NCBI GenBank assembly: GCA_034190875.2 | Contig: CM067354.1 | Coordinates: 37,340,441-37,404,440, forward strand | Direction: 5' to 3' | Origin: Urechis unicinctus | Taxonomy: Eukaryota; Annelida; Polychaeta; Xenopneusta; Urechidae | Length of the DNA stretch: 64,000 nt | In this document: piece by piece, positions 9,701-40,085 of the stretch | Numbering within the stretch: the first letter of the stretch is position 1 | How the letters are laid out: every line of letters starts with the position of its first letter | Program-made: the position numbers and the translations under genes | Notes under the pieces: generated by a model | Database searches by the model: none | Told to the model about the DNA's origin: nothing | What the model saw: only the letters and a program-made list of their open reading frames with translations

Positions 9701-10882
9701 AAAGTCCAACCACCACACACATACCATATGGCAGGCAGGGCAGGTGTGGTCCTATTGTAGTGGAGTGGTAGGGGGGGGGGGGGGAGTGGGGAGGTGCTGA
9801 GTGAGATGGATCCTCACTTACACCCACATCTCATTACACAACAGACCAGGAAAATACTCCATGTTAGCCCTACATGAACCATCCATTATAAAACATCTCC
9901 TACATGGCAGCAGCTCAAATACACCCAGCTCTTAACTACTCAAGTATAGCATGACCTCATCGACTCCTGGTAAGGCAATGTCGAACCCTGACAGAACTAC
10001 CCAACCATGCAATATACGTCAAGGCAGACGTAGGTAAACATCATGTTAGTGGTATTTCCATATGAGGTCATCATTTAGTCCCCAACACACACTGAGACTG
10101 ATGCCTACAAACAATCATCTATAATTTAATGGTGGGTTATGTTTGACATTGACATCAGCAGCTAATTGATGAGCCAACCCCTAATCCTGTCTCTGTTCGT
10201 TCTGAATTCAGTAGTTGTCATTGAAGACATTTAATGTAAAATGACAGGACAATGTGAGATTATTCCAATCATGGATCTATCCAGCTGGTTAATTGGGAGT
10301 GCGTATAAGCAATGACAGAAAACCATTATGTAATTAATATGCTCTCACCACTGGCACCATGTACAACGGAAATAATGAATGAGGCACTCACTTGAGCCTG
10401 AAGTTGGTATTTTCATCTCTTAGTGTTTTGTTTTCTATGTCAGCGCGTGTTTTTGCTTTGGCTGTATCGTCCAGCAATTTACGTGCTTCCCTCAGCTCTA
10501 CGTCATACAAGTTCTACAACACAGGTCACACTGATAAGTCATACAAATCTTATAACTCATACATTTAGTATTATATCACTATACAGTAAAGCTATTAAGA
10601 TACAATATGTTCTTCATTCACCTTGATATTTGTCACTTCTGTTTTAGTGGCCTCTTCTTGTGTGGAGACAATCTTGGTCAGTCGGGAATTTTCTGTTTCT
10701 AATGAACGAACTTTATCAATGTAGGAAGCTAGTCGGTCATTGAGATTAGCAAGATCTTCTTTTTCCTGTACACGAGATATCCAGTTGGGAGACGGAGGCC
10801 GGTTTCTCGAAGGGGAAGCAGCCCGAGCAGGGGTGGATGATTTGGGCGTACCAGATGCACCCTTTTTCATTCTTGCTGACAT
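3701..10882 (-). CDS. Nuclear lamin (type V intermediate filament protein), 12 coding exons
   Basis: Lamins build the filament layer under the inner nuclear membrane. Coding exons, 5' to 3' on the minus strand: 10882-10622, 10513-10392, 6828-6696, 6553-6407, 6294-6124, 5880-5755, 5643-5423, 5240-4994, 4885-4772, 4665-4549, 4260-4156 and 3769-3701. All junctions have GT-AG ends and the phase is kept, giving 610 residues, a usual lamin length. The head is followed by the coil 1A signature ([17 protein letters not shown]). The rod spans about residues 50-394 and ends in [14 protein letters not shown] basic nuclear-localisation cluster (SRKRRL) follows. The Ig-like lamin tail domain (about 450-560) includes the hallmark [10 protein letters not shown]. 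The start codon at 10880-10882 is followed by the Ser/Pro-rich head typical of lamins. The last exon is uncertain: as modelled it ends SFFSFMK with no CaaX box, while another candidate exon at 4005-4062 ends CGVC. Exons 1-10 are firm. Confidence 0.93.
4005..4062 (-). other. Alternative candidate last exon of the lamin, ending in a CaaX-like CGVC
   Basis: An acceptor (CTGCTTGCAG) precedes base 4062. In one phase the exon codes 18 residues ending VSICGVC and stops at 4005-4007. Cys-Gly-Val-Cys at the very end would be an acceptable prenylation box and most animal lamins end in one. Using it needs an exon 11 donor in phase 2, for example just before a GTGTGG at about 4130, so the link is inferred. 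Confidence 0.35.
4255..4318. repeat. Tandem duplication of the lamin exon 11 acceptor
   Basis: A unit of about 33 bases containing CATCTCCTGTAACACAC occurs twice. On the minus strand this gives two consecutive acceptors. Using the upstream one would bring a TGA into frame after five codons, so the downstream acceptor at 4261-4262 was chosen. Confidence 0.7.
4431..4562. repeat. Roughly 60-bp tandem repeat overlapping the lamin exon 10 donor
   Basis: Three diverged units share TCTACATTGCCTACAGTAA and GTTACCTC(A/G)CCCTG. The unit nearest exon 10 includes the end of that exon and its GTAACA donor, so donor-like copies lie inside intron 10. Confidence 0.65.
5258..5341. repeat. 18-bp minisatellite in lamin intron 7
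   Basis: Four to five copies of a unit close to GACAGGGTGGTACAGAGT lie just downstream of the exon 8 acceptor region. The frame through it (TTLSLC repeats) is a by-product of the repeat. Confidence 0.85.
5896..6045. repeat. 20-bp minisatellite in lamin intron 5
   Basis: Seven or eight imperfect copies of AAATGCTGACCTCCTTACCC with small length changes lie between lamin exons 5 and 6. Confidence 0.85.
8200..9400. promoter_or_regulatory. CpG-rich block in lamin intron 2, possible internal promoter
   Basis: This stretch is clearly richer in G+C and CpG than its surroundings (many CGCG, GCGC and CGACG words). It contains TATATAAAC at 9075-9083 followed by a GC-rich start-like region. Long frames open on both strands (for example 8997-9359 plus and 8849-9316 minus), which is common in CpG islands and not evidence of coding. 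It lies within the 3.6-kb intron 2 of the lamin and could be an alternative promoter or enhancer. No transcript is implied by the sequence itself. Confidence 0.35.
9621..9796. repeat. Two long G tracts in lamin intron 2
   Basis: A run of about 17 G followed by further G clusters begins near 9621. A second run of about 14 G lies near 9770. Both fit G-quadruplex composition and are likely polymorphic. Confidence 0.8.
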
Positions 10883-10907
10883 AGTGGAGGTTATGTAATT
10901 GACTTCT
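10883..10907 (-). other. 5' UTR part of lamin coding exon 1
   Basis: Upstream of the start codon, a good acceptor (TGTGTTTCAG) ends at 10908, so the 5' UTR is probably interrupted. A possible donor of a first non-coding exon is GAAG followed by GTAATC at 11494/11493. Its 5' side is CpG-richer and an E-box CACGTG lies near 11558. This is a reasonable but unproved promoter region for the lamin. Confidence 0.4.
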
Positions 10908-12838
10908 CTGAAACACATACCCCTCATTCAAATGTTGCACCAAATACCATGTATACTCATATACAAAGTAAGGCCATTATTCAGTGAATCCTAGGTCCAT
11001 TCATCAATACCAGGCTAGTCACAGGCTCACCTTCCATCAATGAATCATATCAATTAACGGAAACAACCGAAAAGTATTTTGGATGAATCTAGACTACTAC
11101 TACTAGACTAGAAAAATGTTTCTGGCTGGAAATCAACAACATCGAGATTTAAACATTTCCATCACAATAATTATATCATTCCCTGTATTGGTGACTGTGT
11201 AGCAATAATTATTCGATTCTGAACGATAATTTTTTTTTAAACGTGCCTTCAATTGATACAACTTTGTTGTTACTGCGAAAGGGTAACAAAGGCGCTGACC
11301 CCCACGGCCAGGCCGCGGAGAAGTTCGTTTAGCGATCATCAACATATGACGATATGTCTGACCTCGAATTAATGTATGCAGACCGTAACAGATTCACAAA
11401 TGCCCACCGACACCCAGTTAGTATTCTTATCAATCATTTGAACAACTTGATAATCGCGAATTAGGGTTAATAAATTGCACAATTTGTGATTACCTTCAAA
11501 ATCAGCAGTGGTCGATAAGAGATAACGAAGTTTGCCGGCTTCTCGCGTGGGTTGATCACGTGACTCTTAAGCGCATTGACCATAACTAGGTCAGGTAACA
11601 TACGTTATGATGGACAGCTATTGGAGAAATCAAACCGTTACTAGCCCTTAACACTTACCTGTACAAAATATCAGTCGACAGTTAGACATTTACGACTCAA
11701 TTCTTGGCCGTGAATCTTTTTCGAATTAAATCTTATTCTATCAGCCTATGATGTTTACAGAGACCGATGACCGCTGCTTGGTCTATAAATATACCTTATT
11801 GTTTCATAGCCATTGGAAGACAGATTGGTATACATTCTCCTGAGCTTATACACAAGCTGTATAGCTTCGAATATAAATTACAGATAATAATATTGTTCAA
11901 AACAGCTTTGCGTAACACAAACACCGCGGTTTGTCATCAAGATTTTATACCATCTTGCTAAACTACCTCACGTGGCAAAGTCGTTTCAAAGGCATACTGA
12001 GGCGTCCTAGCAATTTTGGCCAAACTGGTTCCTTGTACCAGCAGCACCGTAAAAACGTGATGTTTGTTATAGTGTGGCAAAATCATCGTTTTGACAGGGG
12101 AACAATTATATACTAACGTTATCTCAATAATCAAGTATGGTTACTTCCATGACATTTCTCTGTTTATCTTGACGTCACCGATTTGCACAACCGGAGTTCT
12201 AAGTAGGTTCGAAAGATTATCGACACGTCCGTGTTAAAGATTCGGATTGAGAGAAGGTATCAGCGTAACCACCATTCACTGTGTTAAGCTATCCTTGCGC
12301 CGGCCGCGCTAATAAGTGACGTCACTAAAGCTGTCTTGGTAGCGGCCATGTGCAAAAAACTTAGTTTAATCCGAAAGTGTGTTAATGATTTCAAATTCAA
12401 CAAGTTTGACCGAGTTTGAAAAAGTGTTTCAGTTGACTTTTTACACAAACACTTATAAATGTTCTTTCCGATGATCGTCGTTTTGACACAAATAATTTTT
12501 GCACACGGGCTCTGCCATGACAGTTGTCGTGACGTCTCTAGGGTATATTCAGCGTGTAATATGGTTTAGGTGAAATTAACTTTCAATACTAACCCCAAGA
12601 GTGAAAGTGTTGATGACCTGTCACGCTCACTGATAGCACCGGCTTCATCAACCAGTGACGTCATGAGACTGTCATGGCGGCCTCCATTAACTGAAGATTT
12701 AGAAAAGCTGACTTTATAAACACACTGTGTCAAAACGATGGTTGTACATGACAAAATTTACATTGGTTTATTTTCTATTGTAGTTCTAAGAACCATTGTT
12801 CCCAAACTTGTACAAACATTTCACTTCCTTGTAGCAGT
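10908..12838. other. Lamin upstream region, no coding exon seen
   Basis: No gene was recognised. The stretch holds several TGACGTCA or GACGTCA words (12170, 12317, 12657) typical of CRE-like sites. Two diverged direct repeats share TGACGTCA, then CTGTC, then GCGGCC (around 12317-12350 and 12655-12690). Inverted copies of ATCGTTTTGACA lie near 12083 and 12735. It may be a decayed DNA transposon next to the lamin promoter. Confidence 0.35.
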
Positions 12839-16785: not shown

Positions 16786-18000
16786 TCAGGAGCATTCCGA
16801 AACGTAGTTATACTCCTTGGAAAGATCCCTGAGAGTAGATGCTAATCCTATGTGCTGGGCAAGATTAGGTTCCACTCTTGATCCTTTGAGGTGATTTAAG
16901 GAGGCATATTTATCAATGGCAAAGTCTAGTGGAAATGTCTTTGTATTCACAACAGAACTAAGGTAATCAGTCAGATTGGTGACAGTAACAGCTGGGTAGA
17001 GTGAGGCAGGTAGGCAACAGCCAGGTGTAGGCATCATGTGGTATGTGTAGGTCGAAATGTGGCGCCACTTGTGGAAATAAACTCTACCTACAGAGATGGC
17101 GACAAATACACAATAAACAGCTCCCACAATAAAATGCAACATGCGAGTGGCTGAAATAGTCACAGTGACACCAAACATTCGCAACAGGTAGGGGTACACC
17201 AGCACTGACACAGAGCCACCCACCATAGCCACGCCAGCCAGCTCCAGCATGTTGGCTATGCCGTTAGAAAAGCCCTGGTTGCTTTCTACGGAGAAGAGTT
17301 TTATAAACAACCAGGGTACTCTGGCCTGACGTTCTTGCTGATGTTGCAAAATGAACTCGAGTACCTTGAATGCATTGTCCCGAATCAAACCATCGTCTTG
17401 AATGATTAACACATAGGTTGGTTTGTAGGTCAGAGCATGCTGCATACAGAATACGTAGTCATCTTTCTCTTTCTCCAACACCTCTGATTTGACTTCCACC
17501 TGACTAGAGTTGCCATAGCGAGTTACCATGGGGATGAACTGGGACAAGTAGGCGGACTCCATGTGATTTTCTGGCACAGCATCGACATTACAGAGGAACA
17601 TTTTCTTGTTATTGCCCAAGTGTGTGTCTGCTTGGGTCAGGCGGTGGAGCTTGGCGGCTACTTGGGTGAGGTAGCCCAGTTGTCCTGTCTTACAGTGAGA
17701 CACCCTATGCATTCGGTTGATGGTGGTGATACCAATAGCTACATCCACGTCATCACTTGAACGTTCCGTGACTAAAGGGGGCACATTCGTAAAATAATTG
17801 TTGGCTTCCTCAAGACGCCTTTGATTTTCCAACACTGCTTGCTGAACTTCGTATTGGCTCGACCAGCAGTAATACGAGTATGTCCAGTTTCGGCAGACAT
17901 AGGAGAGAGTGAAGAAAGTTAACAGGAATATTGGCATAGCCAGACAAAGACTTGGCTTATTTGTGGTCCATAAAAGGTGAATTGCACCTGAGCACGCCAT
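16786..18000 (-). CDS. PGAP4: PGAP4-like (TMEM246) GPI-anchor GalNAc transferase
   Basis: A single uninterrupted frame of 404 codons, matching the roughly 403 residues of vertebrate PGAP4. PGAP4 is a Golgi enzyme that adds N-acetylgalactosamine to the first mannose of GPI anchors. The protein shows an N-terminal membrane segment (about 20-36). Its glycosyltransferase half contains IIQDDG (residues 199-204), the likely acidic metal/sugar-nucleotide site. Two further membrane helices (about 251-274 and 286-306) interrupt the catalytic domain, an arrangement typical of this family. The C-terminal catalytic part includes PNLAQHIGLASTL. Possible N-glycosylation sites are N164 (NSS) and N342 (NLT). 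The first ATG at 18000 was chosen because it directly precedes the membrane segment. The gene is intronless. The assignment rests on length, topology and motif recall, not on alignment. Confidence 0.72.
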   Translation of the reverse strand: MACSGAIHLLWTTNKPSLCLAMPIFLLTFFTLSYVCRNWTYSYYCWSSQYEVQQAVLENQRRLEEANNYFTNVPPLVTERSSDDVDVAIGITTINRMHRVSHCKTGQLGYLTQVAAKLHRLTQADTHLGNNKKMFLCNVDAVPENHMESAYLSQFIPMVTRYGNSSQVEVKSEVLEKEKDDYVFCMQHALTYKPTYVLIIQDDGLIRDNAFKVLEFILQHQQERQARVPWLFIKLFSVESNQGFSNGIANMLELAGVAMVGGSVSVLVYPYLLRMFGVTVTISATRMLHFIVGAVYCVFVAISVGRVYFHKWRHISTYTYHMMPTPGCCLPASLYPAVTVTNLTDYLSSVVNTKTFPLDFAIDKYASLNHLKGSRVEPNLAQHIGLASTLRDLSKEYNYVSECS

Positions 18001-19161
18001 GGTGAGAGTATCTACTTGGTAAAGGTGCTTGCGTTAGTGAATGCTTGGCGTCTCCTCTGAAACATTCATCATAAACCCTGGTTGAGCTAGCGTACATAAA
18101 TATAAATGAAGTAAACAATTGGACTTGGATAGTTTTTTTACAGGCATAAATGTAAAAAAAAATGGAAGGTATTCACCAAGTGAAGTTCTATTCACAGAAA
18201 GGTTAGATGTTATTTAATGAAATGTTAATTTCCGAGATGAAAGCAAATTCAGATGGTCGTAGTCGCTCTGGAACCTAGATTATATTTGATTAGCACACAT
18301 GCACTCCAGTCGTAAAATGGCACAAGTCTCTGATAGCTAAGGGGTGTGGGCATGCAGGCCTCGTAAGGTCGGTGTATATACCGTCTTTTCGTTTTTGGTT
18401 TTGAAACCAAAAACAAAAACGAACAACAGTAACTAAACCGCGTTTCATTTGCGACAACAAAAAAGTGGACAATACTTAACAGATTCATTTTTTGTCGTGG
18501 TCAAATGGAAAACGAGTGGTGCTGCAATGTTTTTACTGATACAAGCGGCAGGATAGGTTGGTTAGTATCCAGACTGTTTGTCTCATTTTTGTTCGTTTTG
18601 GGTATTTGGTTTTGATTAGCAAAAAACATACAGACAGTATATACACGGACCTCGTACACCCGAGGCATTAATTTTCAACGGTTATAGATGGCCTGTATGG
18701 TTAACAGCACTTAATAGTAATGTAAATGTGCCCTAGAAAACTCGGCTAAGATAACCACCACCGGCCCAGATAACCGCGCTAAGCTCATTAGGCTCGGTTC
18801 AGATTACCACTTCAAGCTCAGATGGTCACTACCGGCTCAGATGGTTACCACTTACCATTTTCTTAGCTTGATGCCAGCAACATACAGACGGCAATGCAGA
18901 GGAGGAGATAGAAAGGTTACCTCTTCACTGAAGATGTCAGCTTTACTGTTAGCATCAGATATCGACCTCGACATGTTATGCTGTCCCGCCATGCCCAAGC
19001 GAACGCTTCCAGCAGCCACAGGCCGTACCACCATTGATCGACGAGTCGCCCCGTATGCACCTCACACACGCCCGGGAAGCGTTCCTTACCATTGTTGTTG
19101 CCGGCCTTTCCCGTAAATAGGACGAATTTTGCGACGAACGTGCTTTAACTTCCTTCATAAC
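18001..19161. other. Non-coding upstream of PGAP4-like gene, with a perfect palindrome
   Basis: No coding exon was seen. At 18391-18414 lies a near-perfect palindrome, GTTTTTGGTTT facing GAAACCAAAAAC. Around 18740-18850 short degenerate repeats of CAGATAACCAC / CTCAGATGGT occur. Confidence 0.5.
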
Positions 19162-21359: not shown

Positions 21360-24300
21360 ATGCGTTTCGAGTCAATGTCAAAGTAACATTAATCCAACGT
21401 CAATTTATAAAAAGTCTACTTTTCTGCATTTCTCTGAGGGAAACACGTTAATCACTTTGTCAACATCGAAGTTCATGTCCTTGTGTACAGGGCTTACGAC
21501 GACAGCCTGTCAGACGTCATTGTTGTTCGCAATAGCTTTTTATGCGTTTCATTCCACTAAATGACCTTTCACATGTGGCCGACGTTGGTGGCATGGTCAA
21601 AAGGACCCAGATGATGGTACAAATGCAAGGATGTTCGGCTCTCGTAGAGTCAGGCAACAGAGGTAGATGTTAATCGTAACAAGAGTGAATTGGATATTTT
21701 GCTTGATGATGTGTTTGTATCGCATGATGTGTTTCAATGCACCGGTGCCGTGATAGCAATTACCAAACAGCTATTGATGCACTTTGGTAAATCAATTGTT
21801 GGCTGTTGTACTAAAGCTGGTAAAGAAATTATTCCTTCAAAGAAGCCTTTTTCCAGAAAAATTGCGAGATGGTTAGAGATTGTAAAACCAGAGAAAGAAC
21901 AATCACTTTTCTGGCATTGGATATGGCTCGAGTGTGGCAAAACTAGCAAAGGCACTGTGTATGACATAATGAAGCAGTCACGTCATAAATATCATTATGC
22001 CGTACGCGCAGCCAAAACAAATGATTTCGATATAAAGAAGGCAAATTCTGACTTTTGGTGTGAACTAAAAAAGAATCCAAACTGTAAGAGTGTACCTACT
22101 GTGGTAGATAATGCAAGTGGACCAGTGCCTATTGCAAACCTTTTTCTGGATAAATACTCGGCGTTATTCAATAGTGTTCCCACAAACGACAATAAAATGC
22201 GTGATGTGATGAAAGCGGTTAATGCTGGTATTAGTAATGACAGCACAAGATATCATGTTGTAACATCATCTGTTTTATATGAATGTATAGGAAAGTTGAA
22301 GAGTAACAAAAGCGATGGCAATCGTGAGCTTTTTCCTGACCATTTGATTAACGGGACGCCCAAACTTAATGGTCTGTTATGTAAACTAATCAATGCTATG
22401 ATTTCACATGGCCATACAGCTGATAATTTATTAAATTCAACGATTGTTTCGATACCAAAAGATATGAGATCAGCATTAAGTTGTAGTGATAATTACAGGG
22501 GAATTGCATTATGTAGTGCTATTTGTAAAGTTTTAGATATGATAATACTAAAACCGTATGGTAATGTTTTGTGTACGTCTGATCTTCAATTTGGCTTCAA
22601 AAAGGGACATTCTACAATCCTTTGCACGACTATATATAACGAAACAATAAGTTATTATACGCAAAGAAATAGTGATGTTTTTAGTTGTTTGTTAGATGCT
22701 AGTAAAGCTTTGACAGGGTACATTATGGAAAATTATTTTAATAGCTACTGCAGCGTAAAGTGCCTCCGCTTATAGTTAGGTTTCTTATGGATAGCTATAC
22801 TAGACAGACTATATCTGTTTAATGGAATGCATGCTTATCAAAAGAGTGCTATGTATTAAACGGTGTTAAGCAAGGTGGTGCTATATCACCGATATTATTT
22901 ACTATGTACATTGACGAGCTGATACAAAGGTTAAAAAAGTCTGGACTAGGCTGTCATATAGGCAGCGACTATGTAGGTGCGCTTGGTTATGCTGATGACA
23001 TTACATTAATCAGTCCAAGTCTCATTGCATTGAACAATATGTTGAAAATATGTGAACGATTTGCTGATGAATATAACCAAAGATTGTAGAACAATTCTAT
23101 AATCTTTGATATAACGTGGTTTTTAATCCGTTGAAAACAAAATATGTCAGGGCAGTAAATGAATTTGATAAGGTGATATTGTATGGGCCACAACTATTAA
23201 ACACTTGGGGAACGTCATTGATAACAAGTTGAATGATTATAGTGATTGCACATTAAAATGTTCTATATTTAATGTTGCTTTTAACAAAATGATGGGGAAC
23301 TTTGGTGAGTTGCATAACAGTACATTGTGCAAATTATTCAATTCCTATTGCTGAAGTTTGGACCATTGATTCTGATGGTTATAAAAAAAAAATATGTGTT
23401 CAATGGAATAAGGCTGTTAGGAGAATACTCCTTCCAATCGTTTCGCATACTTGGGTACTAGGGCCATTAAGTGGCCAACTACACATTAGCGTTTCGTTAT
23501 GCATAAAAACGTTGAAAATGATTGCCCAAATGAATCACAGTGACAATGCAGTAGTTCAGTATGTGATGTGACGTTCAATATCACCCAAATTATTAAGAAA
23601 GAGTCGTTAACAGATGAACAGAAGGGATTGGTCTGTACCTTTAATACTTTGTTTTGTGTTAAAAACAATGAAATTATGATTGATGAATTCGACGATCTAA
23701 TGATTTATTTGATGATACAAGATATTTTAGTATCGTAACAGTTTTATTTCTTTTCTGTTGAATGTTGCACTTTAGTTTAAATTGATGTATCACAATTATT
23801 GTTTATGTAGGTACCTTGAGTACGAAATGAACATATAAATAAGTCCTTGCACGTCTGCTGAAGGGTGTCTTGAGTCTTGAAGCTTTAATGTCTGCCATAC
23901 TCAATCTAACTCTCCATCTAGCAATTTCCGACTTGAATGCCTCGTACGTTTGAGGAAGGTCGGGGGCAAAGGCGGTATATATTGTCGGCAGCATATTATC
24001 TCGCAGGTCAGCCAGTTTGGAAGGCAATAAGTGTTGCGCACAGTACCGAACTTCATTACCCAGGATGCGAGTTTCCATTTCCTGAACTAAAAGGTCGAGG
24101 AAAATATAATACAAAGTGACCCTGTAGTAATCGGACACCGTTTCGACATCAGGGTTAGCTCTGTTCTGCTGTCGACCAGCTCTTCTCGGGATTGATGGTC
24201 GAAAGTCAAAATCGGCGCTAACATCTACGGCCTTGTCGTAAAGAGCATCCCAAACATACTGGTCAGCCCTTTCATCGTTGCACAGCTTAATAACTACGCG

Positions 24301-25746
24301 TGTTTTATTCACAGCGTGCACCAAGTCATTGTCCTGCTTTTGTAGGAGATTTATCAGGGGAACGGTGCTACTCAGAATGTGTTCCGCCACAAGCAGCGCG
24401 ATTATAAATTCGAATCGCAATATGGCGGCCAGATATTGCACCGCCTTTTCGTCGCCATCTGCCTGCAACGTCTCCAATGCGTGAACCACTACGGGGAACG
24501 CCTTCTTGAAAGTTTCAAGAACGTGTGCCCATCTGGACCAACGTGTTTCACACAGAGTACGGACCTAAGTGCGCTAGTTCATTTCCTCTTGCGTAGTAAC
24601 ATCGCGTGACAGCTCGTCCTGGACAGCGAACAACCGTTTAGCTGAATAATCAAACAAGAAGCTTATTTCCTGAACAGTCGACATTATGGTTCTGACACAA
24701 GGAATGTTCGAACTATGGACCAAAGACAGATTCAAACAATGCGATTTACAATGCACGTAATTTGCATGTGGTGAACGTTCATGGATAAGAGCTTAAAACC
24801 CCCGAAATTTCCCTGTCATATTTGACGCACCTTCATAGCACTGAGCTCTGATCTTAAGTATATCGAGATTTGCTCCTTGCAAGAACTCCACAATGTTTGG
24901 GCAAAGTGCGACTCCCTTGATCGATTCACACTCGAAGAATCCAAGAAATCCTTCTCGGACTGCGCAACTCCCATCGACGAAACGCACGCAAAAAGATTTT
25001 TTTGTAGATTTGTCTGTTGCTTCATCAACCATGATGGCATAATAGGGGCACGACCGACAGTCTTCCAAGAGTTGTTTCTTTACCTGACTTGCGCAAATGC
25101 CAATTAATTCATTTTGGATTTCTGATGAAGTGTATTTACTGTTATAGTGTGCGTTGTCTAGATGATTTGCTAGGATTTGGTCAATTTGTGCGAGTGTCCT
25201 CAGTAAAGCCATGAAATTGCTGTTATTTTCGGTGTGTCCACGTAATGGTATATTCTGCTTTGCACAAAGCACAATTACTTCAATAATTCAGGACAATATG
25301 TATCGATTTTTGTTTAACGATTCTTTCGCACTGGTGGATACAGTTTTATTCATCGATTCACTTTTTCCGGACAAGATATCCATATAGCCTTCGGCACGAA
25401 CCGACGCATCAAGATGGAATTTTTCAACTGCTTGACGTTTTATTAGCATGGAAATATTCTTCCAATCCCATGTGCCAGCTGCAAAAGTTTTCTCTCGTCC
25501 CTCTATGCCTCTAAACAAACAGCAGTTCACACAACAGACGGCATCCTTTGTCATGGAGTACCTAAACCATGGTGTTTCCATTAACCATTTTTCGCAGCTT
25601 ACTACTTGTTCCAAATGCCCTGGAAAAGAAAAATACAATAATAAATAATGGTATTCAAAATTAAAAATTGTTATAAGACAAAGAATTTTGAAAAAATCTG
25701 GCGGACGGGGAATCGAACCCGTTATGCTCGGGTGCGAGGCGAGCAC
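21360..25746 (-). pseudogene. hAT transposase (ZMYM1/DUF4371 type), split by a LINE
   Basis: Pieces in order on the minus strand: a TTF-type zinc-finger-like region with paired cysteines (CCVNCCLF) at about 25450-25640; DUF4371 with YYAIMVDEATDKSTKK at about 25000-25060; YEGASNMTGKFRG at 24793-24840; the frame 24574-24756; and the frame 23803-24489 with PSIPRRAGRQQNR. The C-terminal dimerisation region then reappears 2 kb further on at about 21360-21620, with ATCERSFSGMKRIKSY and a downstream FDVDKVINVF-like stretch. Stops and frame changes separate the pieces. The gap coincides with the plus-strand LINE, so the LINE jumped into the transposase gene. Confidence 0.75.
21660..23800 (+). pseudogene. 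5'-truncated non-LTR retrotransposon (LINE) reverse transcriptase
   Basis: The frame 21690-22775 matches the reverse transcriptase of jockey/CR1-like LINEs: the region with DNYRGIALCSAICKVLD, then QFGFKKGHST, then CLLDASKAL. It breaks before the next block. NGVKQGGAISPILF appears at about 22860-22910 and the catalytic YADD in GYADDITLISP at about 22987-23020, in another frame. The endonuclease half is absent, as in typical 5'-truncated copies. No poly(A) tail is visible. Clade assignment within the jockey/CR1 group is uncertain. The insertion interrupts the hAT transposase on the opposite strand. Confidence 0.85.
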
Positions 25747-29804: not shown

Positions 29805-30008
29805 AGTAGTATATATGTTGGGGGTTCTGGGACAGCAGGGGGCGGTTTTGGGACCGCCCTAGGAGAGGGTTTTGACCCGATCTGCCCTTTGTACAGGTCC
29901 ACAGAATATATCCAGCTGGCTGCATATACAACACCACCGCCAGCCAACAGGGATATCCCAACCACCAGGGGAATCCCCAACGCCACCCAACAGCAGGATA
30001 CAGTCTTG

Positions 30009-30050
30009 TATATAAAAGCGCACCAACCCGACATAGCTACTCGGATTATG
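30009..30050 (+). promoter_or_regulatory. Promoter/start cassette, copy A
   Basis: TATATAAAAGCG is followed by CACCAACCCG and CATAGCTACTCGGATTATG, with the ATG (30048-30050) opening a frame. Copy B (35288-35329) has the same order on the minus strand and copy C lies at 36212-36258. A TATA box about 37 bases before an ATG inside a conserved block suggests a promoter with a very short leader. Confidence 0.6.
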
Positions 30051-30152
30051 GCTACTTTTTTCTCGCCCCTCGGCCCTCCCCCAACGCCCCACACCACGGT
30101 CCCCCAAGGCAAGCCATACAAGGGCCACCCCCAGACGGCCTACTCCATGTAG
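30048..30152 (+). CDS. Short frame driven by cassette A
   Basis: The frame starts at the cassette ATG (MATFFSPLGPPPTP) and stops after 34 codons at 30150-30152. It is proline-rich with no known motif. Its end overlaps the end of the minus-strand frame series of paralogue 1 by 13 bases. It may be a truncated remnant of a longer protein, as the cassette B frame also begins with a Pro-rich stretch. Confidence 0.3.
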   Translation: MATFFSPLGPPPTPHTTVPQGKPYKGHPQTAYSM

Positions 30153-30880
30153 AAAGGGTCCTCCTTCTTGGCAGCCATAGGTGTCTACCAATGTAGGAGC
30201 CACAGGCGTAGTCCTCGGATGTGCGTCGGGGTCTCTGCTAGCATATTCCAGGCAACACCCCCCAATCCCTCCATACACCCAGTTTTTGATCTGGGAAACA
30301 AAAGAGCCAACCTCGTCCTCCACACAGTCGCCAACCACACAATCGCCAACCTCGTCGATTGCATCCTCCACCGCGTCCTCCTCCACATGATCATCCTCCG
30401 CCGCGTCTTCGATGTTTTGGCTCTGTAGTACAACAAGGTCGTTCATTTGTTGCTGCATAGTCGAAATACTGCTGCCAACCGCATCGATCTTGTTTGCAAT
30501 GGCCTGGTAGAAGTCGTACACGCTAGGTCCTCGGGCGGACAACATAGGTTGCTCGAGTGTACTTCCAAAGGGCCCCCCCCCACGTTGGGTTGACATAGGT
30601 TGCTCCGCCCGGGTTGCCACAGCGGTTGACATAGGTTGCTCAGCCAGTCCGCCCCTGGGTCCTCCACCTGGGGTTGCCACAGCGGTTGACATAGGTCCTC
30701 CATCGAAGGGTGGCAACAGCAGTAGGTCCCGCCACATCGGCTGACCAGATCCTAGCCAGCCTTGAAGACCCTATCCCGTACTTTCTTTTCGCAGCAGCAA
30801 AAGAGATTTTTACTTTGTCGGCAATGCTTGTTTGGATAAGTATAACGCAGCCGGCATATATGCCAGAATACATAGGTCCA
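30140..30880 (-). pseudogene. Virus-like element paralogue 1: HTH-like motif, acidic middle, DPFYME end
   Basis: Read in order on the minus strand: an HTH-like segment AAAKRKYGIGSSRLARIW (about 30777-30830); a Gly/Pro-rich linker with repeats of EQPMSTAVAT; GPSVYDFYQAI (about 30500-30530); a long acidic stretch; NWVYGG (about 30270); and DPFYME ending at the TAG 30140-30142. The segments lie in more than one frame. The same order occurs in paralogue 2 next door, which shows a tandem duplication. The function is unknown. The HTH suggests DNA binding and the acidic middle an interaction or scaffold role. Confidence 0.55.
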
Positions 30881-30949
30881 ATAGACCCAGCCCACCCCAT
30901 GACCCACCACCTAGGTAGACCAACCCCGTCACCTACAGGGCTTCTATAG

Positions 30950-31580
30950 CTACTCCATATAGAAAGGGTCGTCCCTAGGGTTTGCCTCGGCTAGTTTTTC
31001 CACTATTGGCGTGGTACGAGGATGTAGGAATCCGCCAGGCAAGTAAGGTCGCATTGCCTCCATACACCCAGTTTTGGATGCAGGCAACAACAGAGCCAAC
31101 CTCCTTTTCCACCGCAGAGCCAACCTCTTCCTCCACCTCTTCTTCTTCCAAGACTTCTTCCTTTTCCACCAAATCGTCTAGTTTGTAGCCAATCGTATCG
31201 ATTTTTCGGCCATGTCGGAAATAGCCTGGTAGAAGTCGTACACACTAGGGACGCCTAGGGCCAAGAGAGGTCTGGTATACATGTTTTCCCCCATAGGCGG
31301 AAAACGGGAAATCTGTTGCACGCCCCGCCTTGCCAGTACGTTATTCCACCTGGGTTCCACTATTGGTTGGAAGACGGGCAATCTGTTGGCCCCAATCGCC
31401 TTCGTTGTCCCCTGGTTTCCACCATTTGTGGAAAACTGTTGGCCACCGTTCCATATTTTGTAGAGTCTTGTAGTTCCTATTTCATACCTTTTTCGGATCT
31501 CGTCTGCAGAAGCGATCCCCTGCAGAGCGCGTATATTTCTTGAATTTGCTGGTCGGATAGCCGTATACCATACCAAACCA
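30950..31580 (-). pseudogene. Virus-like element paralogue 2 of the HTH/DPFYME family
   Basis: It shares its order with paralogue 1: an HTH-like segment ADEIRKRYEIGTTRLYKIW (about 31440-31500), then a linker, then GVPSVYDFYQAI (about 31210-31250), then a Glu-rich stretch (about 31080-31170), then NWVYGG, then DPFYME with the stop at 30950-30952. A candidate start lies near 31580 (MVWYG). At least two frame changes are needed to read it through, so it is decayed. The two paralogues lie head to tail and differ most in the linker. Confidence 0.55.
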
Positions 31581-31619
31581 TACTTTCAATACAAGTACAG
31601 TGTAGTTTGGTCCGGTGGG

Positions 31620-32335
31620 TGCGGGCACTATACCATCTGCTGCCAGCACTATACCAACTTCTCCCAGCACTATACCAACTTCTTCCAGCACTACCCCAGC
31701 CCTTGCCAGCACTATACCAACTCCTGCCACGGTTCTTGGCTACACAAATATATAGAGACATAGTTCTGTTGCCGGTTGGTAGAATCTACTCCACTGGAAG
31801 AAACATACCAAAATTTGATAGAGAGACATTTCTCCAAGTGCTGGAAGAGTACAACAAGAACCCCTGTGCCTTGAAATATATTCCAGAAACCATAGCTCCC
31901 AAAGGGGCCAGAGAGATCGTCGGACATGTCCCAAAAGTGATGGCACCACGACTGGAAATACAGCCCCTGTACGTGGTACAATACGATGTTGTATACGTGC
32001 CATGCTTGCCGAACGGACAAACATTTGCTCCCGGATCCAGGACCTATTGCCAGCACATATAGACATTCGGGGAAGAGGGGTATATGGAGTGGCATCAAAG
32101 TATCCGGCCAAGGTTTCTCCAACTTTCCCGAAATGCTATGTACCGCCAAGCAAATTTGGAAAGGGAGATTCTAGACGAGGACGATCTATATACATTTGCA
32201 AAGCCTTGTGGGAAAGAAGCTACTGTGTTGTCCCCGCAGGGAAATGAAACAGGCAGGAGCTGGGAGAGATCTATGCTGTTGGCTACTGCGGTTCCCCAGT
32301 TTCTATGCACCAGGAGAGGAGTTGTAGCGTACTAG
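31620..32335 (+). pseudogene. Virus-like element plus-strand frame series, possibly protease-like
   Basis: The frame 31607-32062 begins with six copies of an 18-bp repeat (ALYQLLP) and then becomes an ordered protein with VGRIYSTGRNIPKF, FLQVLEEYNK and GHVPKV. The coding signal continues in two other frames to 32335. The GRIY / GRN pattern followed by GHVP loosely recalls capsid-maturation (prohead) proteases of tailed phages. This is a weak resemblance and the catalytic serine was not identified. It converges with the minus-strand series ending at 32303. Confidence 0.35.
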
Positions 32336-32950
32336 GTCGACAACGTCCGCTGCGGCCTTGGTACACCCACCATAGGATTGGCCATCTGTTGCCCTATGGC
32401 GTTGGAAGGACACCAACCGGTCCTTCTTCTTCTGGGGGGTTGTCCTTTCTCCTGCCAGCCTACACAGCATAGGCACCCAGACGTTTTCCAACCCCCAAAC
32501 CTCACGACCTCCTGTACTAGGAAGTGGACATGGACTGGGATTTCTTCTGCTCCCGGGGTTGGCTGGCCGTTCTCATCCAACGGCACAATGAACAGGATTG
32601 GTTTTGGTACGTTGCGGGAGGTGAACATGTTGTAGCGACAGCAGGTGTGCTCCCCCAGTTCTATCGATAGCATCCTTTGCTGCTTCCACAGGGGTGCGGC
32701 CTGGACCTTCAACAGGAACGTCTCGGCAACCACGGTGGTATACCTTTCGAAGTCGGTTTCCATCTGCTGCAGTTCTTTCAGATGGGAGAGGTCTGGGGCC
32801 GACAGCACATGAAGAGGGTGCCAGGATATCTTTCGCCCTTCTTTGTTTTGGAACTCCTGCGCCAATCTCCAGCAGCTGTCCGGGGGTTACCTTTGGTGCG
32901 CCATGCCTCGGTTGGCCTTTGGTGGGCCGGGGGGTGTAAGACATGGGAGG
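32303..32950 (-). pseudogene. Virus-like element minus-strand frame series, unknown protein
   Basis: A well-formed stretch runs from about 32865 to 32500, with PLHVLSAPDLSHLKEL, FLLKVQAAPLWKQQRM and KPILFIVPLDENGQ. It changes frame near 32490 and ends at 32303 after ADVVDLVRYNSSPGA. Its 5' side carries over into another frame near 32870. It looks like a real globular protein with one frameshift at each end. The family was not recognised. Confidence 0.45.
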
Positions 32951-33008
32951 CAACCAGTAGGTTTTTCCTTTGTTTTCCTCCCTCTCCTTTTCTTCGTTTG
33001 CTCTACTC

Positions 33009-35290
33009 TCACTCGAAGTACTGCTCTATGTTGGCAAGAATGTTCTCCAGACCTTTTGTAGCCCACACAAGGGTTGGCTCGGGGCAATCCACCTCGTTGT
33101 CCATGTCGCTCTCCTGGTTTGCCTTTGGTGCGCCTGTGTTGATGGGGAGGACCACTACATAGGAACTATAGATAGACTGTTTGTAGCTGAGGATTGTGAA
33201 CTTTGCCCCGCCAACCACCCTATATGCCAACCACCCTATCCGTAGGACCCTCCAAGGCGTTGTATACGATGGCCTTGGTCTTCTCGGATGCCCCCTTGTA
33301 CACCCTCTGTTCTTGCGCCGCCAGGGAGAAGGCGTCCAACTCCTCCTGGCGCAGTGTGCCCCAGCTGCTTGGCTCGGTCCCACGTGGCTCGCTTCCACTC
33401 TTCGGCACTGTGGGCATCTAGGATTCTTTCCAGCTGTTTGGTTCAGACCCACGTGGAAAGTGTGGAGATCGTTCTATTGGTATCTATTTCCTGCACCGGG
33501 TAGGAGAAGTTTCTGCACCAATGGCGTGGCTCTTCTTTGTCCTCCAGGCCAACAAGACGTACTCCATTGGTGGCAACCACGCGTCTATCTCCGGTCCATT
33601 GGGGTGTAGGGCCGTAGGTTGCTTGCATGCTGCCAGGATGGTTCGTGCGTCCGGTCTTTTGCAATAGCATCGCAGTGGGGCCAGCTCTATGCCAACTCTG
33701 CTGGTGCCAAGAATGTCCACCCAGAATATGGGGCAGTTGCGAAATCCAAAGTCCCCTATGGCCCAGAGGACTGCCCACTCCCAGCTGTCCTTGTTGTCCA
33801 CCTTTGCTTTGGTGGGCCTAACGCGAATCCCGCAATTCTCCCGGTTTCGGTGTGGGCATACCAGGCTACTAAGATCTCCACGTGCTTCCTGTATGACAGA
33901 ACTAGGGTGCGGTTCAGCTCCTTTGCCAGGTTCTCCCACTGCTTCTTTGGCGGCTATACCACAAAGGCGGATGGGGCCATTCCGAGTCCACAAGGGGCTG
34001 GCCCATCCGGTGCACCAAGGGCCGACTCTTCGGGACCACCAAGGTTGTCCATGGGGGCAGGTGCTGGTCCACCACAGGGTCCAACCAGGTCTAGGGCTTT
34101 CTGGACCACAACGTTGTCAACATCGGTAAAGTGGGTGGGGAAGGCGTAGACCGAGACCTCGATGCGTGTACAACCACGTTCTTGGACGTCGGGGTGCTGG
34201 AAGGTCTTTTGTAGGTGGGAGTTGGGACAGTCTACATAGTCTGCCAGGTGCCCGCTCATGGTTTATCGTACCTCCCCAGGTTCGAAGTTAGCGCCGACCT
34301 TGTCGTAGAGCTTGGTACGGACCATGTAGCCATCGTATGTATGGATCCATGTACACACGTGTTTTCATAAGCTTCCTGTGTTGTCTAGGATGCAAGGTTG
34401 GTTGCCGTCCCTGGGGTCGTATGGTCGGCCGGGCTCGTCTTGCATACGGAAGTCGTGGTTGTTGCACAGGTGTTCTACACCGGAGAAGTGTCATGTGTAG
34501 TCTACGAAGTACAGGCCGTAGCCCAACGATCGCAGTCTTCTTTCTAGGGCGTCGTCGATGGGGATTTGGGAAATTTTGGCCACTTAGTATCTACTGGTGT
34601 GTTGGGGTGCAACTCCTCCCAGTTCTTTTTTACTTTGCAGTTGGGGACTCGCTCGATTCGGACAATGGTGCTCCGGGTGGATCACCCGGTTCATCTTTGT
34701 TGTGTGGATGGTGTGTACCAGCTTTGTGTCTACGGACCTGAGAAGTTCTCTCGGCGTGTTATCGATATAGGTGTAGATTCGTTTGGCGCTGCCGTCCTCT
34801 CCGGTGCTGCATTGTAGGCCACCTCCGACCTCCACACACTCTTCCCTGTGCATGTACCCATAGACGTAGATGTCGTCGACGAAAACAGGGAGGCCCTCCA
34901 GTGGTTGCAGGTGGTTGGGTCCAAGGTTGACGGCCAGGTAGTCAACCATTGATATGTCCGGGAGCAGGTTGCTGTCGCAGGCATTTTCCATCAAGAGGTG
35001 GAGTGCAATACTCTTCTCGCTGCGGATTCCCATGCTTTGGAAGGTGGTAGCTATATCCATTGTGTATGTACCGGTAGCCATATCTTCAAATCGTGGCATC
35101 TTTGCCTGTTTCTGGAAAGGGTAGCCTGTGAGCGCCTTTGGTAGCGGACTGTGGGGTGGTGGAGCCGTTGGGGATGGACCTTGTTTGCTGATGGCCCGAG
35201 GGTGGTCTGCCTTTTGGGGACCGTGGGTCGAGAGGAGCCTTTTGGTGCCTCGCTAGGGTCTGTTGGTGGTTTTGCCTGTGGGGTACCCAT
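33009..35290 (-). pseudogene. Long minus-strand coding series of the virus-like element, opened by cassette B
   Basis: The cassette B ATG at 35288-35290 opens a Pro-rich N-terminus (MGTPQAKPPTDP). Coding signal continues through 34584-35099 (GLPVFVDDIYVYGYMHREE) and on. From about 34560 to 33954 one frame stays open except for three stops: TGA 34491-34493, TGA 34365-34367 and TAA 34263-34265. Around them are RTKLYDKV and CTRIEVSVYAF. The pairing of a K-x-Y-D-K and an R-x-E motif faintly recalls rolling-circle replication initiators, but no nicking motif was identified. Further pieces follow at 33484-33993 and 33009-33452. It may be one large gene or two. It is clearly inactive here. Confidence 0.4.
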
Positions 35291-35329
35291 AATCCGAGTA
35301 GCTATGTCGGATTGGTGCGCTATTATAAC
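35288..35329 (-). promoter_or_regulatory. Promoter/start cassette, copy B
   Basis: On the minus strand TTATAATAGCGCACCAA is followed by the same CATAGCTACTCGGATTATG core as in copy A, with the ATG at 35288-35290 starting a Pro-rich frame. It is inverted relative to copy A. Confidence 0.6.
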
Positions 35330-35485
35330 ACACTCTATGTCCATCTCGATCAAGTCAGTACCACTCACAACATGCTAGATGGTGCGCCCACTACGTTGTT
35401 GGCTTAGAGGGTGGCTATTTCGGTGATATTATAACCACAAACATCGCCAATCCTGTTTGTAAGCGTGTTACTAGTGGAACTGTGC

Positions 35486-35992
35486 ATGAGAGAGAACAAA
35501 ATCGTTCAGTTGGGAGACCCAACATCGTCTAACGATGCTGCTAATAAAAAGTATGTCGATGCACAACACAAACGGCAACGCAGGGACCTGAGACAACACG
35601 AAAATTCGCAAACGAAACACCTCTTACTATTTGGGCAGAAGCAAGTGGCGCCCTTCGCATAAGATATAAGTGGTCGTTTGGTGAAGGGGGTCGAGACTCA
35701 CTAGACTTAAGCTGTGGACATAACATGTTATCCATTGGTAAGATAATTCGCATGGGGTTGTCGTCTGGTGGGGGCGCTGATACTGGTGGTATAGTAGTGT
35801 TTCCTGTTATATATAAATGGGACAACTAAATCGGTAGGAATAAGTAAGCCTGCTAACCAACAGGCTGTTGTAATATCTTTAGACCAGCCTTTACAGCTGG
35901 AACAAGGCAACGTTATCAACTTTTATACAGCCACTCCAAACAGAGGGGTGACTTGTACTGTAGTATCACTTCTTATTGAACTTGTTGTATAG
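35486..35992 (+). pseudogene. Fibre-like protein frame of the virus-like element
   Basis: The ATG at 35486 starts a frame with IVQLGDPTSSNDAANKKYVD, the motif repeated in tail and tail-fibre proteins of many phages, where it marks the base of a trimeric shaft. The frame stops at 35662. Coding-like sequence continues in two further frames. The last, to the TAG at 35990-35992, is rich in beta-type residues (AVVISLDQPLQL, GVTCTVVSLLIEL), as expected of a small C-terminal head domain. A frame change lies near 35790. By position and motif it would be a receptor-binding fibre. Breaks make this copy inactive. Confidence 0.5.
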
Positions 35993-36211
35993 ACTTATGT
36001 ATACAACGGCAGTATGAAACATTCATACTGCACCGTTAAATTCGGAGCTGCCTGACGAGAATCCGGGGCACTCTTATCGGCTGAATGAGATCAGTCTCAA
36101 GAAGCAATACCTTGAAAAAGTAATTGAAAAATATGTACAAACAATATAGGCGCAGTAAACTCAGTGGACGCAGTTGACACTCCTTTAGTTGCTGTTGGTA
36201 TGTGTCTTGAC

Positions 36212-36258
36212 GCTTTTATAATCCGAGTAGCTATATCGGGTTGGTGCGCTTTTATAAG
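36212..36258 (-). promoter_or_regulatory. Promoter/start cassette, copy C (no ATG)
   Basis: The same block as copies A and B: TTATAAAAGCGCACCAAC, then CATAGCT-like core with a T, then GGATTATAAAAGCG. The start codon position reads ATA, so a second TATAAAAGCG arises where the ATG should be. Confidence 0.55.
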
Positions 36259-36354
36259 ATATATTTCTAGAAAATCCTTTGGTATCTGGTATCGTTCGTA
36301 GATGCCAACCCCCTGGGAATCTATAATCTCTAGCTCTCTTTCGGATAGATACAA
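36259..36354 (-). pseudogene. Virus-like element HTH-like frame, copy 4 (truncated)
   Basis: The frame starts at 36354 with YLSERELEIIDSQGV and YERYQIPKDFLEIYL, which follows the pattern of the other three HTH-like segments (basic-Tyr-x-Ile, then x3-4, then Leu-x2-Ile). It runs directly into cassette C, so only the HTH part remains. Confidence 0.4.
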
Positions 36355-36366
36355 GTAGGGAAACCT

Positions 36367-36573
36367 CTATTCTAGCAGATCCCAGATCTCCGCTCGTTGT
36401 TCGATATATGGCAGTGCTTGGCGGCCTTTGGTGGAACATTTTCTGGGGCTATTCCACGGATTTTTTGCGTACCTTGCTTGCGAAATGTGGTATTTCTCCT
36501 TTGCTGCACGAACAGACAAGGCTTCAGATCGTATCTCGGTATAGGCTTCTCTTGGTAGGGTTGTTCTTGGCAT
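36367..36573 (-). CDS. Virus-like element HTH-like small protein, copy 3
   Basis: An intact 68-codon frame from the ATG at 36571-36573: LPREAYTEIRSEAL, RAAKEKYHISQARYAK and IEQRAEIWDLLE at the end. The middle part aligns by eye with the HTH-like segments of paralogues 1 and 2. It may be the only unbroken frame of the family here, although the base order after YAK also fits the next frame, so a small frameshift is possible. The likely role is DNA binding. The target is unknown. The cassettes nearby are an obvious guess. Confidence 0.4.
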   Translation of the reverse strand: MPRTTLPREAYTEIRSEALSVRAAKEKYHISQARYAKNPWNSPRKCSTKGRQALPYIEQRAEIWDLLE

Positions 36574-36775
36574 GGTATATACCTATGTACTCGCATTTGT
36601 TCAAAAGGGAGTACATATAGGTTGTTTGGCTCTTTGGTTGGCGAAGGCAAAACCGAGGCTGTTGTTTTTGCAATTTTGGCCGTGTTGCCACCTGGGCTGG
36701 CGCGGAGGCTTTGGAGGATGTGGGTTTGCGCTGGGTTGTTTGCCTTGGTTCGGAGGAGGAGGTTGCCTATCCTGT

Positions 36776-36920
36776 GTACCCGTAAAATTCCTCTAGTTGG
36801 GGTGGTGTACCCGCAAAATTCCTCTAGTTGGGGGGAATATTAGTAGTAAATAGAGAAAAACCATCGTAAGTAGCGAAAAAACCCTTGCAAGTAGAGAAAA
36901 AACCATAAGTAGAGAAAATC
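36776..36920. repeat. Direct repeats near the right end of the virus-like element
   Basis: GTACCCG(T/C)AAAATTCCTC with following TAGTTGGGG occurs twice (36776-36838). Three copies of (A)GTAG(A/C)GAAAAAACC follow to about 36920. Arrays just inside the inverted end could be binding sites. Confidence 0.7.
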
Positions 36921-36969
36921 TGTTGTCTCTATTTGGTCCCCGCGTAGTTCCCCCACTCTCTATACTACT

Positions 36970-38530: not shown

Positions 38531-39473
38531 TGATCATCTGCAGGTGAGTGTAAGCTGGGCGGTGAGACATTGATCATCTACAGGTGAGTGTAAGCTGGGC
38601 GGTGAGACATTGATCATCTACAGGTGAGTGTAAGCTGGACGGTGAGACATTGATCAACTACAGGTGAGTGTAAGCTGGACGGTGAGACATTGATCAGCTG
38701 CAGGTCAGTGTAAGCTGGAAGGTGAGACATTGATCAGCTGCAGGTCAGTATAAGCTGGGCGGTGAGACATTGATCAGCTGCACGTCGGTGTAAGCTGGGC
38801 GGTGAGACATTGATCAGCTGGTCGGTGTATGAGGGCGGTGAGAAACTGATCAGCTGCAGTCGTGTAAGCTGGGCGGTGAGACATTGATCAGCTGCACGTC
38901 AGTGTAAGCTGGGCGGTGAGACACTGATCAGCTGCAGGTCAGTGTATGCTGGGCGGTGAGAAACTGATCAGCTGCAGGTGAGTGTAAGCTGGGCGGTGAG
39001 ACATTGATCAGCGGCAGGTCGTTGTAAGCTGGGTGGTGAGACATTGATCAGCTGCAGTTCAGTGTATGCTTGGCGGTGAGACATTGATCAGCTGCAGGTC
39101 AGTGTAAGCTGGACGGTGAGACATTGATCAGCTGCAGGTCAGTGTAAACTGGGCCGTGAGACATTGATCCGCAGCTGGTCAGTGTAAGCTGGACGGTGAG
39201 ACACTGATCAGCTGCTGGTCAGTGTAAGCTGGGCGGTGAGAAACTGATCAGCTGCAGGTCAGTGTAAGCTAGGCAGTGAGACACTGATCAGCTGCAGGTG
39301 AGTGTAAGCTGGACGGTGAGATATTTAGCAGCTGCAGGTGAGTGTAAGCTGGGCGGTGAGACACTGATCAGCTGCAGGTCAGTGTAAGCTGGACGGTGAG
39401 ATATTTAGCAGCTGCAGGTCAGTGTAAGCTGGACGGTGAGACATTGATCAGCTGCAGGTCAGTGTAAGCTAGA
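38531..39473. repeat. 40-bp minisatellite, about 23 copies
   Basis: The unit contains TGATCAGCTGCAGGTCAGTG then TAAGCTGGGCGGTGAGACAT. Early copies have TCATCTACAG and later ones TCAGCTGCAG, so the array has two subfamilies. Copies follow directly with no unique spacers, which excludes a CRISPR-like layout. Confidence 0.95.
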
Positions 39474-39479
39474 CAGAAA

Positions 39480-40085
39480 CAATTATCTAACCACACTACT
39501 CAGTGATCTGACAACAATACTCACCAATCTGACCACACTTCTCATTGATCTGACCACACTAATCTGACCACGCTACTCACTGATCTGACCACGCTACTCA
39601 CTGATCTGATCACGCTACTCACTGATCTGACCACACTAATCTGACCACACTTCTCACTGATCTGACCACACTGATCTGACCACGCTGCTCACTGATCTGA
39701 CCACACTAATCTGACCACGCTACTCACTGATCTGACCACGCTGCTCACTAATCTGACCACACTTCTCACTGATCTGACCACACTGATCTGACCACACTGC
39801 TCACTGATCTGACCACGCTGATCTGACCACGCTGACCACACTGATCTGACCACACTTCTCACTGATCTGACCACACTAATCTGACCACACTTCTCACTGA
39901 TCTGACCACACTAATCTGACCACACTACTCACTGATCTGACCACACTAATCTGACCACGCTTCTCACTGATCTGACCACACTAATCTGACCACGCTACTC
40001 ACTGATATGACCACACTAATCTGACCACGCTACTCACTGATCTGACCACACTAATCTGACCACGCTGCTCACTGATCTGACCTGA
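39480..40085. repeat. 35-bp higher-order minisatellite built on CTGATCTGACCACACT
   Basis: The array alternates CTGATCTGACCACGCTACTCA and CTAATCTGACCACACT-type halves to make a roughly 35-bp unit, about 17 times. It starts right after the 40-bp array and shares only the CTGATC word with it. Confidence 0.95.

What the first reader, a model, noticed from the sequence alone, without database searches (positions are those of the whole stretch)
29805..36969. A 7.2-kb virus-like element that does not fit the usual Polinton/Maverick gene set
Seen: inverted ends starting AGTAGTATA, compact two-strand gene packing, a repeated promoter cassette, a family of HTH-like proteins, a phage-type fibre motif and a long minus-strand gene series, all inside an animal genome. 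Known: Polintons and adintoviruses start with AG, but are 15-20 kb or more and carry a protein-primed polymerase, integrase, protease, ATPase and jelly-roll capsid. None of these except a doubtful protease could be read. Inference: a small endogenous DNA virus or virus-derived transposon of an undescribed or little-known group.
Basis: partly seen in the sequence, partly recalled or inferred. Interest (0 to 1): 0.88.

Follow-up and report, generated by a model that had tools for sequence, protein, structure and literature searches.

The report
Hairpin-ended virus-like mobile element family
This stretch is a decayed, rearranged copy of a small virus-like mobile element present in many copies in its animal host genome, with relatives whose ends can fold into hairpins and a main gene that matches no known protein family searched.

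Summary
The element is real. Its AGTAGTATA ends, ~40-nt promoter-like cassettes and genes recur in the host genome (43 matches, itself included, 40 of 91 candidates scored; 177 matches, 127 of 653 scored). Of seven relatives with both ends seen, five are 4.2-5.1 kb. They have inverted repeats whose outer ~50 nt fold as one hairpin (11 of 13 non-window ends folded) and 5-bp target duplications (5 of 6 assessable copies match at 4-5 of 5 bases). The large minus-strand gene 'F' has relatives in sea anemones and in bacterial MAG contigs, probably clam DNA. It is under purifying selection and has no confident match in Pfam, PHROGs, NCBIfam or PDB sequences. No Pfam family was found in six frames of a complete relative. 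The window copy is composite: F broken, one gene duplicated, a truncated fibre module between two cassettes, no target duplication, no terminal hairpin. Best reading: a small hairpin-ended virus-like element family. A satellite of a Polinton-type helper, or a new transposon superfamily, is not excluded. Structure prediction and the helper-polymerase search never ran.

The parts
29805..30010 (+). left terminal region, starts AGTAGTATATATG; same end type as other copies, but does not fold as one terminal hairpin here
   Evidence: no match of 60 nt or more in the 10 other copies compared
30011..30051 (+). cassette copy 1: TATA box, 30-odd nt, ATG; faces inward, 207 nt inside the left end; promoter role inferred
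   Evidence: region 30011-30327 matched in 8 of 10 other copies compared
30049..30152 (+). short proline-rich open frame starting in the cassette (possible leader or first exon)
   Evidence: the segment recurs near both ends of copy C2a
30142..30900 (-). HTH-like gene A, tandem duplicate of gene B; 30328-30949 not matched in the 10 other copies compared
   Evidence: repeats D2, D3, D20
30950..31585 (-). HTH-like gene B
   Evidence: HTH by eye only (0 Pfam families)
31625..31729 (.). 21-bp tandem repeat, 5 copies
31750..32335 (+). candidate gene D, one in-frame stop; coding status not shown
   Evidence: pieces conserved in 9 of 13 stretches, but antisense frames are conserved too
32332..32953 (-). 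gene E, one frame break; about 200 aa; no family match
   Evidence: dN/dS 0.44-0.64 in 4 pairs
33009..35292 (-). gene F, the large core gene, broken into pieces in three frames; relatives in sea anemones and clam-associated contigs
   Evidence: tblastn of P0009 42% over 433 positions, E 1e-110
35287..35327 (-). cassette copy 2; by position the promoter and start codon of gene F (inferred)
35328..36213 (+). fibre module: 5'-truncated, frame-broken fibre gene (tail-fibre motif 35465-35662) and a following open frame; lies between cassettes 2 and 3
   Evidence: matched over its length in copy C2 (L028), partly in C12, in none of the other 8
36218..36256 (-). cassette copy 3, start codon changed; 714 nt inside the right end
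36255..36573 (-). HTH-like gene C
   Evidence: 36504-36799 shared with copy C8a, 1 of 10 copies
36774..36833 (.). 31-bp tandem repeat, 1.9 copies
36846..36918 (.). 21-bp tandem repeat, 3.7 copies
36950..36969 (-). right terminus, AGTAGTATAGAGAG read inward; same end type as copy C8a

Best explanation
The window holds an old, rearranged copy of a small virus-like mobile DNA element family. The working unit is a linear DNA of about 4-5 kb (6.9 kb with a fibre gene). Each end is an inverted repeat whose outermost ~50 nt fold as one hairpin. A promoter-like cassette lies inside the ends, facing inward, and by position starts genes, F among them. Shown: shared ends, terminal hairpins (by calculation), 5-bp target duplications, the cassette near the end in about half of the arms, many copies, purifying selection on F, a fibre gene in one F-bearing element. 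Inferred: F recognises the hairpin ends and drives replication and/or integration; the hairpin ends are copied by self-priming or resolution, as in parvoviruses; the linear DNA then joins a 5-bp staggered cut in the host; the cassette is a promoter; the fibre serves attachment in members that still make particles. The window copy arose by later recombination at the cassettes, plus a gene duplication.
For: Family and ends. Target duplications: CATTG/CATTG and ACATC/ACATC exact, three others at 4 of 5; C10 fails at 2 of 5 and the window at 1 of 5; the chance of at least 5 of 7 at 4 or more of 5 is about 2e-8 assuming equal base frequencies. Hairpins: 11 of 13 non-window ends pair from base 1-3 to base 49-57, z -1.0 to -7.4 against dinucleotide shuffles. 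Cassette facing inward 90-480 nt from the tip, well kept in 7 of 17 non-window arms, and at 207 and 714 nt in the window; 6 more arms (C11, C9, C10) keep an 11-13 nt core. F: 22 pairwise comparisons give dN/dS 0.16-0.44, 2 more saturated; 4 + 33 homologs. Fibre and a divergent F in one 6.9-kb element.
Against: No replication enzyme, packaging enzyme or capsid was recognised, so a self-standing virus is not shown. F's fold and activity are unknown. Hairpin folding is a calculation on TIR ends; transposon ends can also be palindromic, and 2 of 13 ends and both window ends do not fold this way. The cassette was found well kept in both arms only in C8b and C12 of the 8 relatives with both arms examined; C2a right, C17 left and C2b left show nothing and C2b right 8 nt. 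No relative in IMG/VR contigs, GTDB genomes, phages or plasmids. The copies look old (TIR arms 81-92% alike where aligned over 140 nt or more), so activity was not seen.
Confidence: 0.45

Rival explanations
1. A satellite (non-autonomous derivative) of a Polinton/adintovirus-type helper: it keeps the terminal sequence that the helper's protein-primed polymerase and retroviral-type integrase act on, and travels in the helper's particles.
For: Ends begin AG with a short terminal repeat AGTAGT, as in protein-primed genomes (recalled). 5-bp target duplications, close to the 5-6 bp reported for Polinton-like viruses (passages of PMC12220804). A phage-like fibre, a gene kind also reported in Polinton-like viruses (same passages). 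No own polymerase or integrase found.
Against: Terminal hairpins and end-proximal promoters are not Polinton traits as far as I recall. F is conserved under selection and does not look like a passenger. No helper was seen; but the PF03175 search did not complete.
Confidence: 0.3
2. A cut-and-paste DNA transposon of an undescribed superfamily: F is a transposase that binds the palindromic ends and makes 5-bp staggered cuts; the other genes are regulators and the fibre a captured gene.
For: 5-bp target duplications, TIRs, many copies, homologs in sea anemones and clam-associated contigs.
Against: No transposase family match for F relatives or for a complete copy. A fibre gene, and the same cassette in front of several genes, are unusual for a transposon.
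Confidence: 0.18
3. An endogenous parvovirus/densovirus.
For: Size 4-6 kb, terminal hairpins inside inverted repeats, inward-facing promoter-like cassettes near the ends, which recalls the JcDV map (6,032 nt, 547-nt ITRs, p9 and p93 promoters; passages of PMC5978394).
Against: No parvovirus NS1 or capsid match in a complete relative; no Walker A motif shared between the 6 sequences scanned (one lone hit in C8b, in a frame antisense to F); regular 5-bp target duplications.
Confidence: 0.03

Closest known systems
Ambisense densoviruses (Parvoviridae)
   Same: 4-6 kb, terminal hairpins within inverted repeats, inward-facing promoter(-like) elements near the ends, genes on both strands
   Different: no NS1/SF3 helicase or capsid match; regular 5-bp target duplications; F and E unrelated to known proteins by sequence
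Polintons/Mavericks, adintoviruses, Polinton-like viruses
   Same: ends begin AG, inverted repeats, 5-bp target duplication, phage-like fibre
   Different: 2.6-6.9 kb instead of 14-40 kb (size of Polinton-like viruses from the abstract of PMC12220804); no PolB, integrase, protease, ATPase or capsid match
TIR DNA transposons of animals
   Same: inverted repeats, target duplication, many decayed copies
   Different: no match to any Pfam transposase model; fibre gene; shared promoter-like cassettes near the ends

Membership tests
Polinton/Maverick/adintovirus | protein-primed family B polymerase | tested here: not met
   0 Pfam families in six frames of complete relative C11; not in the 10 window pieces; no PolB motifs in 6 sequences
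Polinton/Maverick/adintovirus | retroviral-type integrase | tested here: not met
   window pieces
Polinton/Maverick/adintovirus | double jelly-roll capsid, packaging ATPase, protease | tested here: inconclusive
   no convincing Pfam match; sequence models can miss distant capsids and no structure could be predicted
Polinton/Maverick/adintovirus | AG termini, inverted repeats, 5-6 bp target duplication | tested here: met
   (in relatives; the window copy lacks the duplication)
Polinton/Maverick/adintovirus | related helper in the same genome sharing the termini | not tested
   The genome search for PF03175 unanswered 13 times
Parvovirus/densovirus | NS1 with SF3 helicase | tested here: not met
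Parvovirus/densovirus | terminal hairpins in inverted repeats | tested here: met
   11 of 13 non-window ends by folding calculation; neither window end
Parvovirus/densovirus | parvovirus capsid protein | tested here: not met
Known TIR transposon superfamilies | recognisable transposase | tested here: not met
   Pfam; Repbase/Dfam not available
HUH-replicon elements (mriyaviruses and others) | conserved HUH motif | tested here: inconclusive
   an HVH in window gene E is not kept in the E frames of the other copies read by eye; scattered motif hits only; F's fold untested

The most novel reading that the evidence does not exclude
A previously unnamed group of small linear DNA viruses of invertebrates, with hairpin ends, promoters near the termini and a new kind of replication/integration protein (F), that entered animal germ lines repeatedly and left many copies, some shuffled at their shared promoter cassettes.
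Probability: 0.35. Interest if true: 0.85.

Novelty: new variant of a known kind. Interest (0 to 1): 0.68.

Why it matters
The core protein F has relatives from sea anemones to clam-associated sequences, is under selection, and has no confident match in Pfam, PHROGs, NCBIfam or PDB sequences. It is therefore a candidate for a new replication or transposition enzyme. Terminal hairpins, end-proximal promoter-like cassettes and 5-bp target duplications in one element family bridge parvovirus-like and transposon-like life styles, and the origin becomes testable by structure.

Tried and rejected
Polinton membership: rejected on missing core genes. Parvovirus membership: rejected on missing NS1. HUH nuclease in gene E: the HVH in the window is not kept in other copies. 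Close relatives in IMG/VR, GTDB, phages, plasmids: none. Gene E alone as query: 35 candidates, none at E <= 0.01. PDB: none; stray hits at E 0.055 and above. Weak Pfam hits set aside: Adeno_E3 at E 0.17 to a window piece, Cornifin at 0.0014 to a proline repeat of P0018, below its cut-off, coiled-coil models at 0.009 and above to a frame in L036. Literature: 8 searches (one search returned no paper) showed no description in the titles and abstract openings listed; the other papers were seen as listings only, and passages were read of PMC12220804, PMC10294476, PMC11071296 and PMC5978394. Repbase and Dfam were not available, so 'unpublished' is not claimed. dN/dS for gene D was not obtained (script stopped; one search timed out). 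One search also timed out.
Full report
What is there. The window 29805-36969 carries inverted ends (16 of 20 bases), three copies of a ~40-nt cassette (TATA box, then an ATG), a tail-fibre motif (PHROG best E 3e-6) and several broken genes. G+C inside is 0.45-0.56. None of the 10 window pieces tested has a convincing Pfam match (best: Adeno_E3 at E 0.17).

It is a family. A 709-nt piece of the large minus-strand gene has 43 matches in the host genome, itself included (40 of 91 candidates scored; the others 71-91% identical). A relative's protein has 177 matching pieces (127 of 653 candidates scored; the list was cut). I fetched 10-kb stretches around 10 of these copies and three more copies. 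The block 30950-35285 matches, at least in part, in 10 of the 10 copies compared, 30011-30327 in 8, the fibre module 35327-36213 in 2, 36504-36799 in 1, and 29805-30010 in none over 60 nt.

Ends. Copies end in AGTAGTATA (or one base off) at inverted repeats: C2a 4.75 kb, C17 4.2 kb, C8b 4.6 kb, C12 2.6 kb, C11 5.07 kb, C10 4.5 kb, and a second element C2b of 6.9 kb in an AT microsatellite. For C9 only the left end was found exactly. Arms align at 91.5% over 200 nt (C2a), 90% over 146 (C11), 81% over 250 (C12), 79% over 86 (C8b), 87.5% over 64 (C17) and 76% over 42 (C10). Target duplications: C17 and C12 exact, C2a, C8b and C11 4 of 5, C10 2 of 5, window 1 of 5; C2b is uninformative and C9 could not be scored. 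Of 13 non-window ends folded, 11 pair from base 1-3 to base 49-57; C8b left and C10 left do not, nor do the two window ends. The right ends of C8a, C10 and C2b were not folded.

Cassettes near the ends. In one search the cassette faces inward 90-480 nt from the tip and is well kept in 7 of 17 non-window arms (C2a left, C17 right, C8b both, C12 both, C8a right). In the window it lies 207 nt from the left and 714 nt from the right end. The six arms of C11, C9 and C10 keep an 11-13 nt core; C2a right, C17 left and C2b left show nothing, and C2b right only 8 nt. In C2a a second block of the inverted repeat lies beyond the cassette, in the first codons, although the right-hand cassette itself was not found. 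The layout recalls the densovirus plan of identical terminal repeats with a promoter at each end (JcDV; passages of PMC5978394), but that is a likeness of layout, not membership, and that the cassette is a promoter is inferred.

Genes. F: P0009, a 507-aa metagenome protein, matches the window over 433 positions at 42%, E 1e-110, across broken frames. Searches of 5.8 billion proteins gave 4 and 33 (only the 8000 best candidates scored) relatives, among them Nematostella (P0010), Actinostola (P0018) and several in Candidatus Thiodiazotropha MAGs, which I take as clam DNA in a symbiont bin (inference). No Pfam, PHROG, NCBIfam or PDB match deserves trust. dN/dS against pieces of copy C16 is 0.16-0.31 (13 pairs) and 0.20-0.44 (9 pairs), with two further pairs saturated, so F was long kept as a protein. 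E gives 0.44-0.64 in the 4 pairs computed before the script stopped. Gene D and the HTH-like genes are conserved in several copies, but frames on the other strand are conserved too, so their coding status rests on reading alone.

Fibre. In C2b (L028:2105 to about 8984) a fibre gene, a membrane-protein-like frame, a coiled-coil frame (the last two by eye) and a divergent F lie between one pair of ends. The fibre therefore belongs to this kind of element in at least one case. In the window it is inverted relative to F, lacks its 5' part, and lies between cassettes 2 and 3. I read this as recombination at cassettes. The window also has a tandem duplicate of the HTH-like gene, not matched in the 10 other copies.

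What is missing. Six-frame Pfam on a nearly complete copy, C11, finds nothing. Motif scans of six sequences (C8b only in part) find no shared Walker A, PolB or HUH signature; single hits were a Walker A in C8b antisense to F and two HExxH in C2b and one in C11. This speaks against ordinary members of Polintons and parvoviruses at sequence level, but not against distant relatives. The fibre-bearing C2b was not scanned in six frames with Pfam, only by pieces. Structure prediction was answered 'busy' 12 times and closed once (calls in Tried and rejected). The search for a helper polymerase in the same genome was unanswered 13 times. These two gaps hold my confidence at 0.45.

Age. Arms 81-92% alike where aligned over 140 nt or more, and many stops, say that the copies seen are old. 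I picked none as active.

Noticed in passing
window 23806-25287 (-): Two long open frames that look like a hAT-type transposase (by eye, from recall; not searched; frames).
   Followed up: no
window 21648-22772 (+): 375-aa open frame that looks like a LINE reverse transcriptase (by eye; frame).
   Followed up: no
window 38531-40082: Long tandem arrays: a 40-bp unit with 23.6 copies, then a 35-bp unit.
   Followed up: no
L042:3746-9999: Copy C16 is tandemly repeated about 4.2-4.4 kb apart with near-identical open frames, so it was probably duplicated recently even if the element is old.
   Followed up: partly
L024:3051 and L024:8119: Two same-orientation ends with the same 8-nt flank, 5.07 kb apart: probably a tandem duplication that includes an element end.
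   Followed up: no
proteins P0002, P0016, P0019, P0035, P0037: Bacterial MAGs (Candidatus Thiodiazotropha) carry pieces of this element family, which suggests host contamination of the bins.
   Followed up: partly
window 10598-10927 (-), 16789-18033 (-), 59375-60615 (+): Exons that look like lamin, a PGAP4/TMEM246-like protein and adenosine kinase (by eye), which fits an animal host.
   Followed up: no
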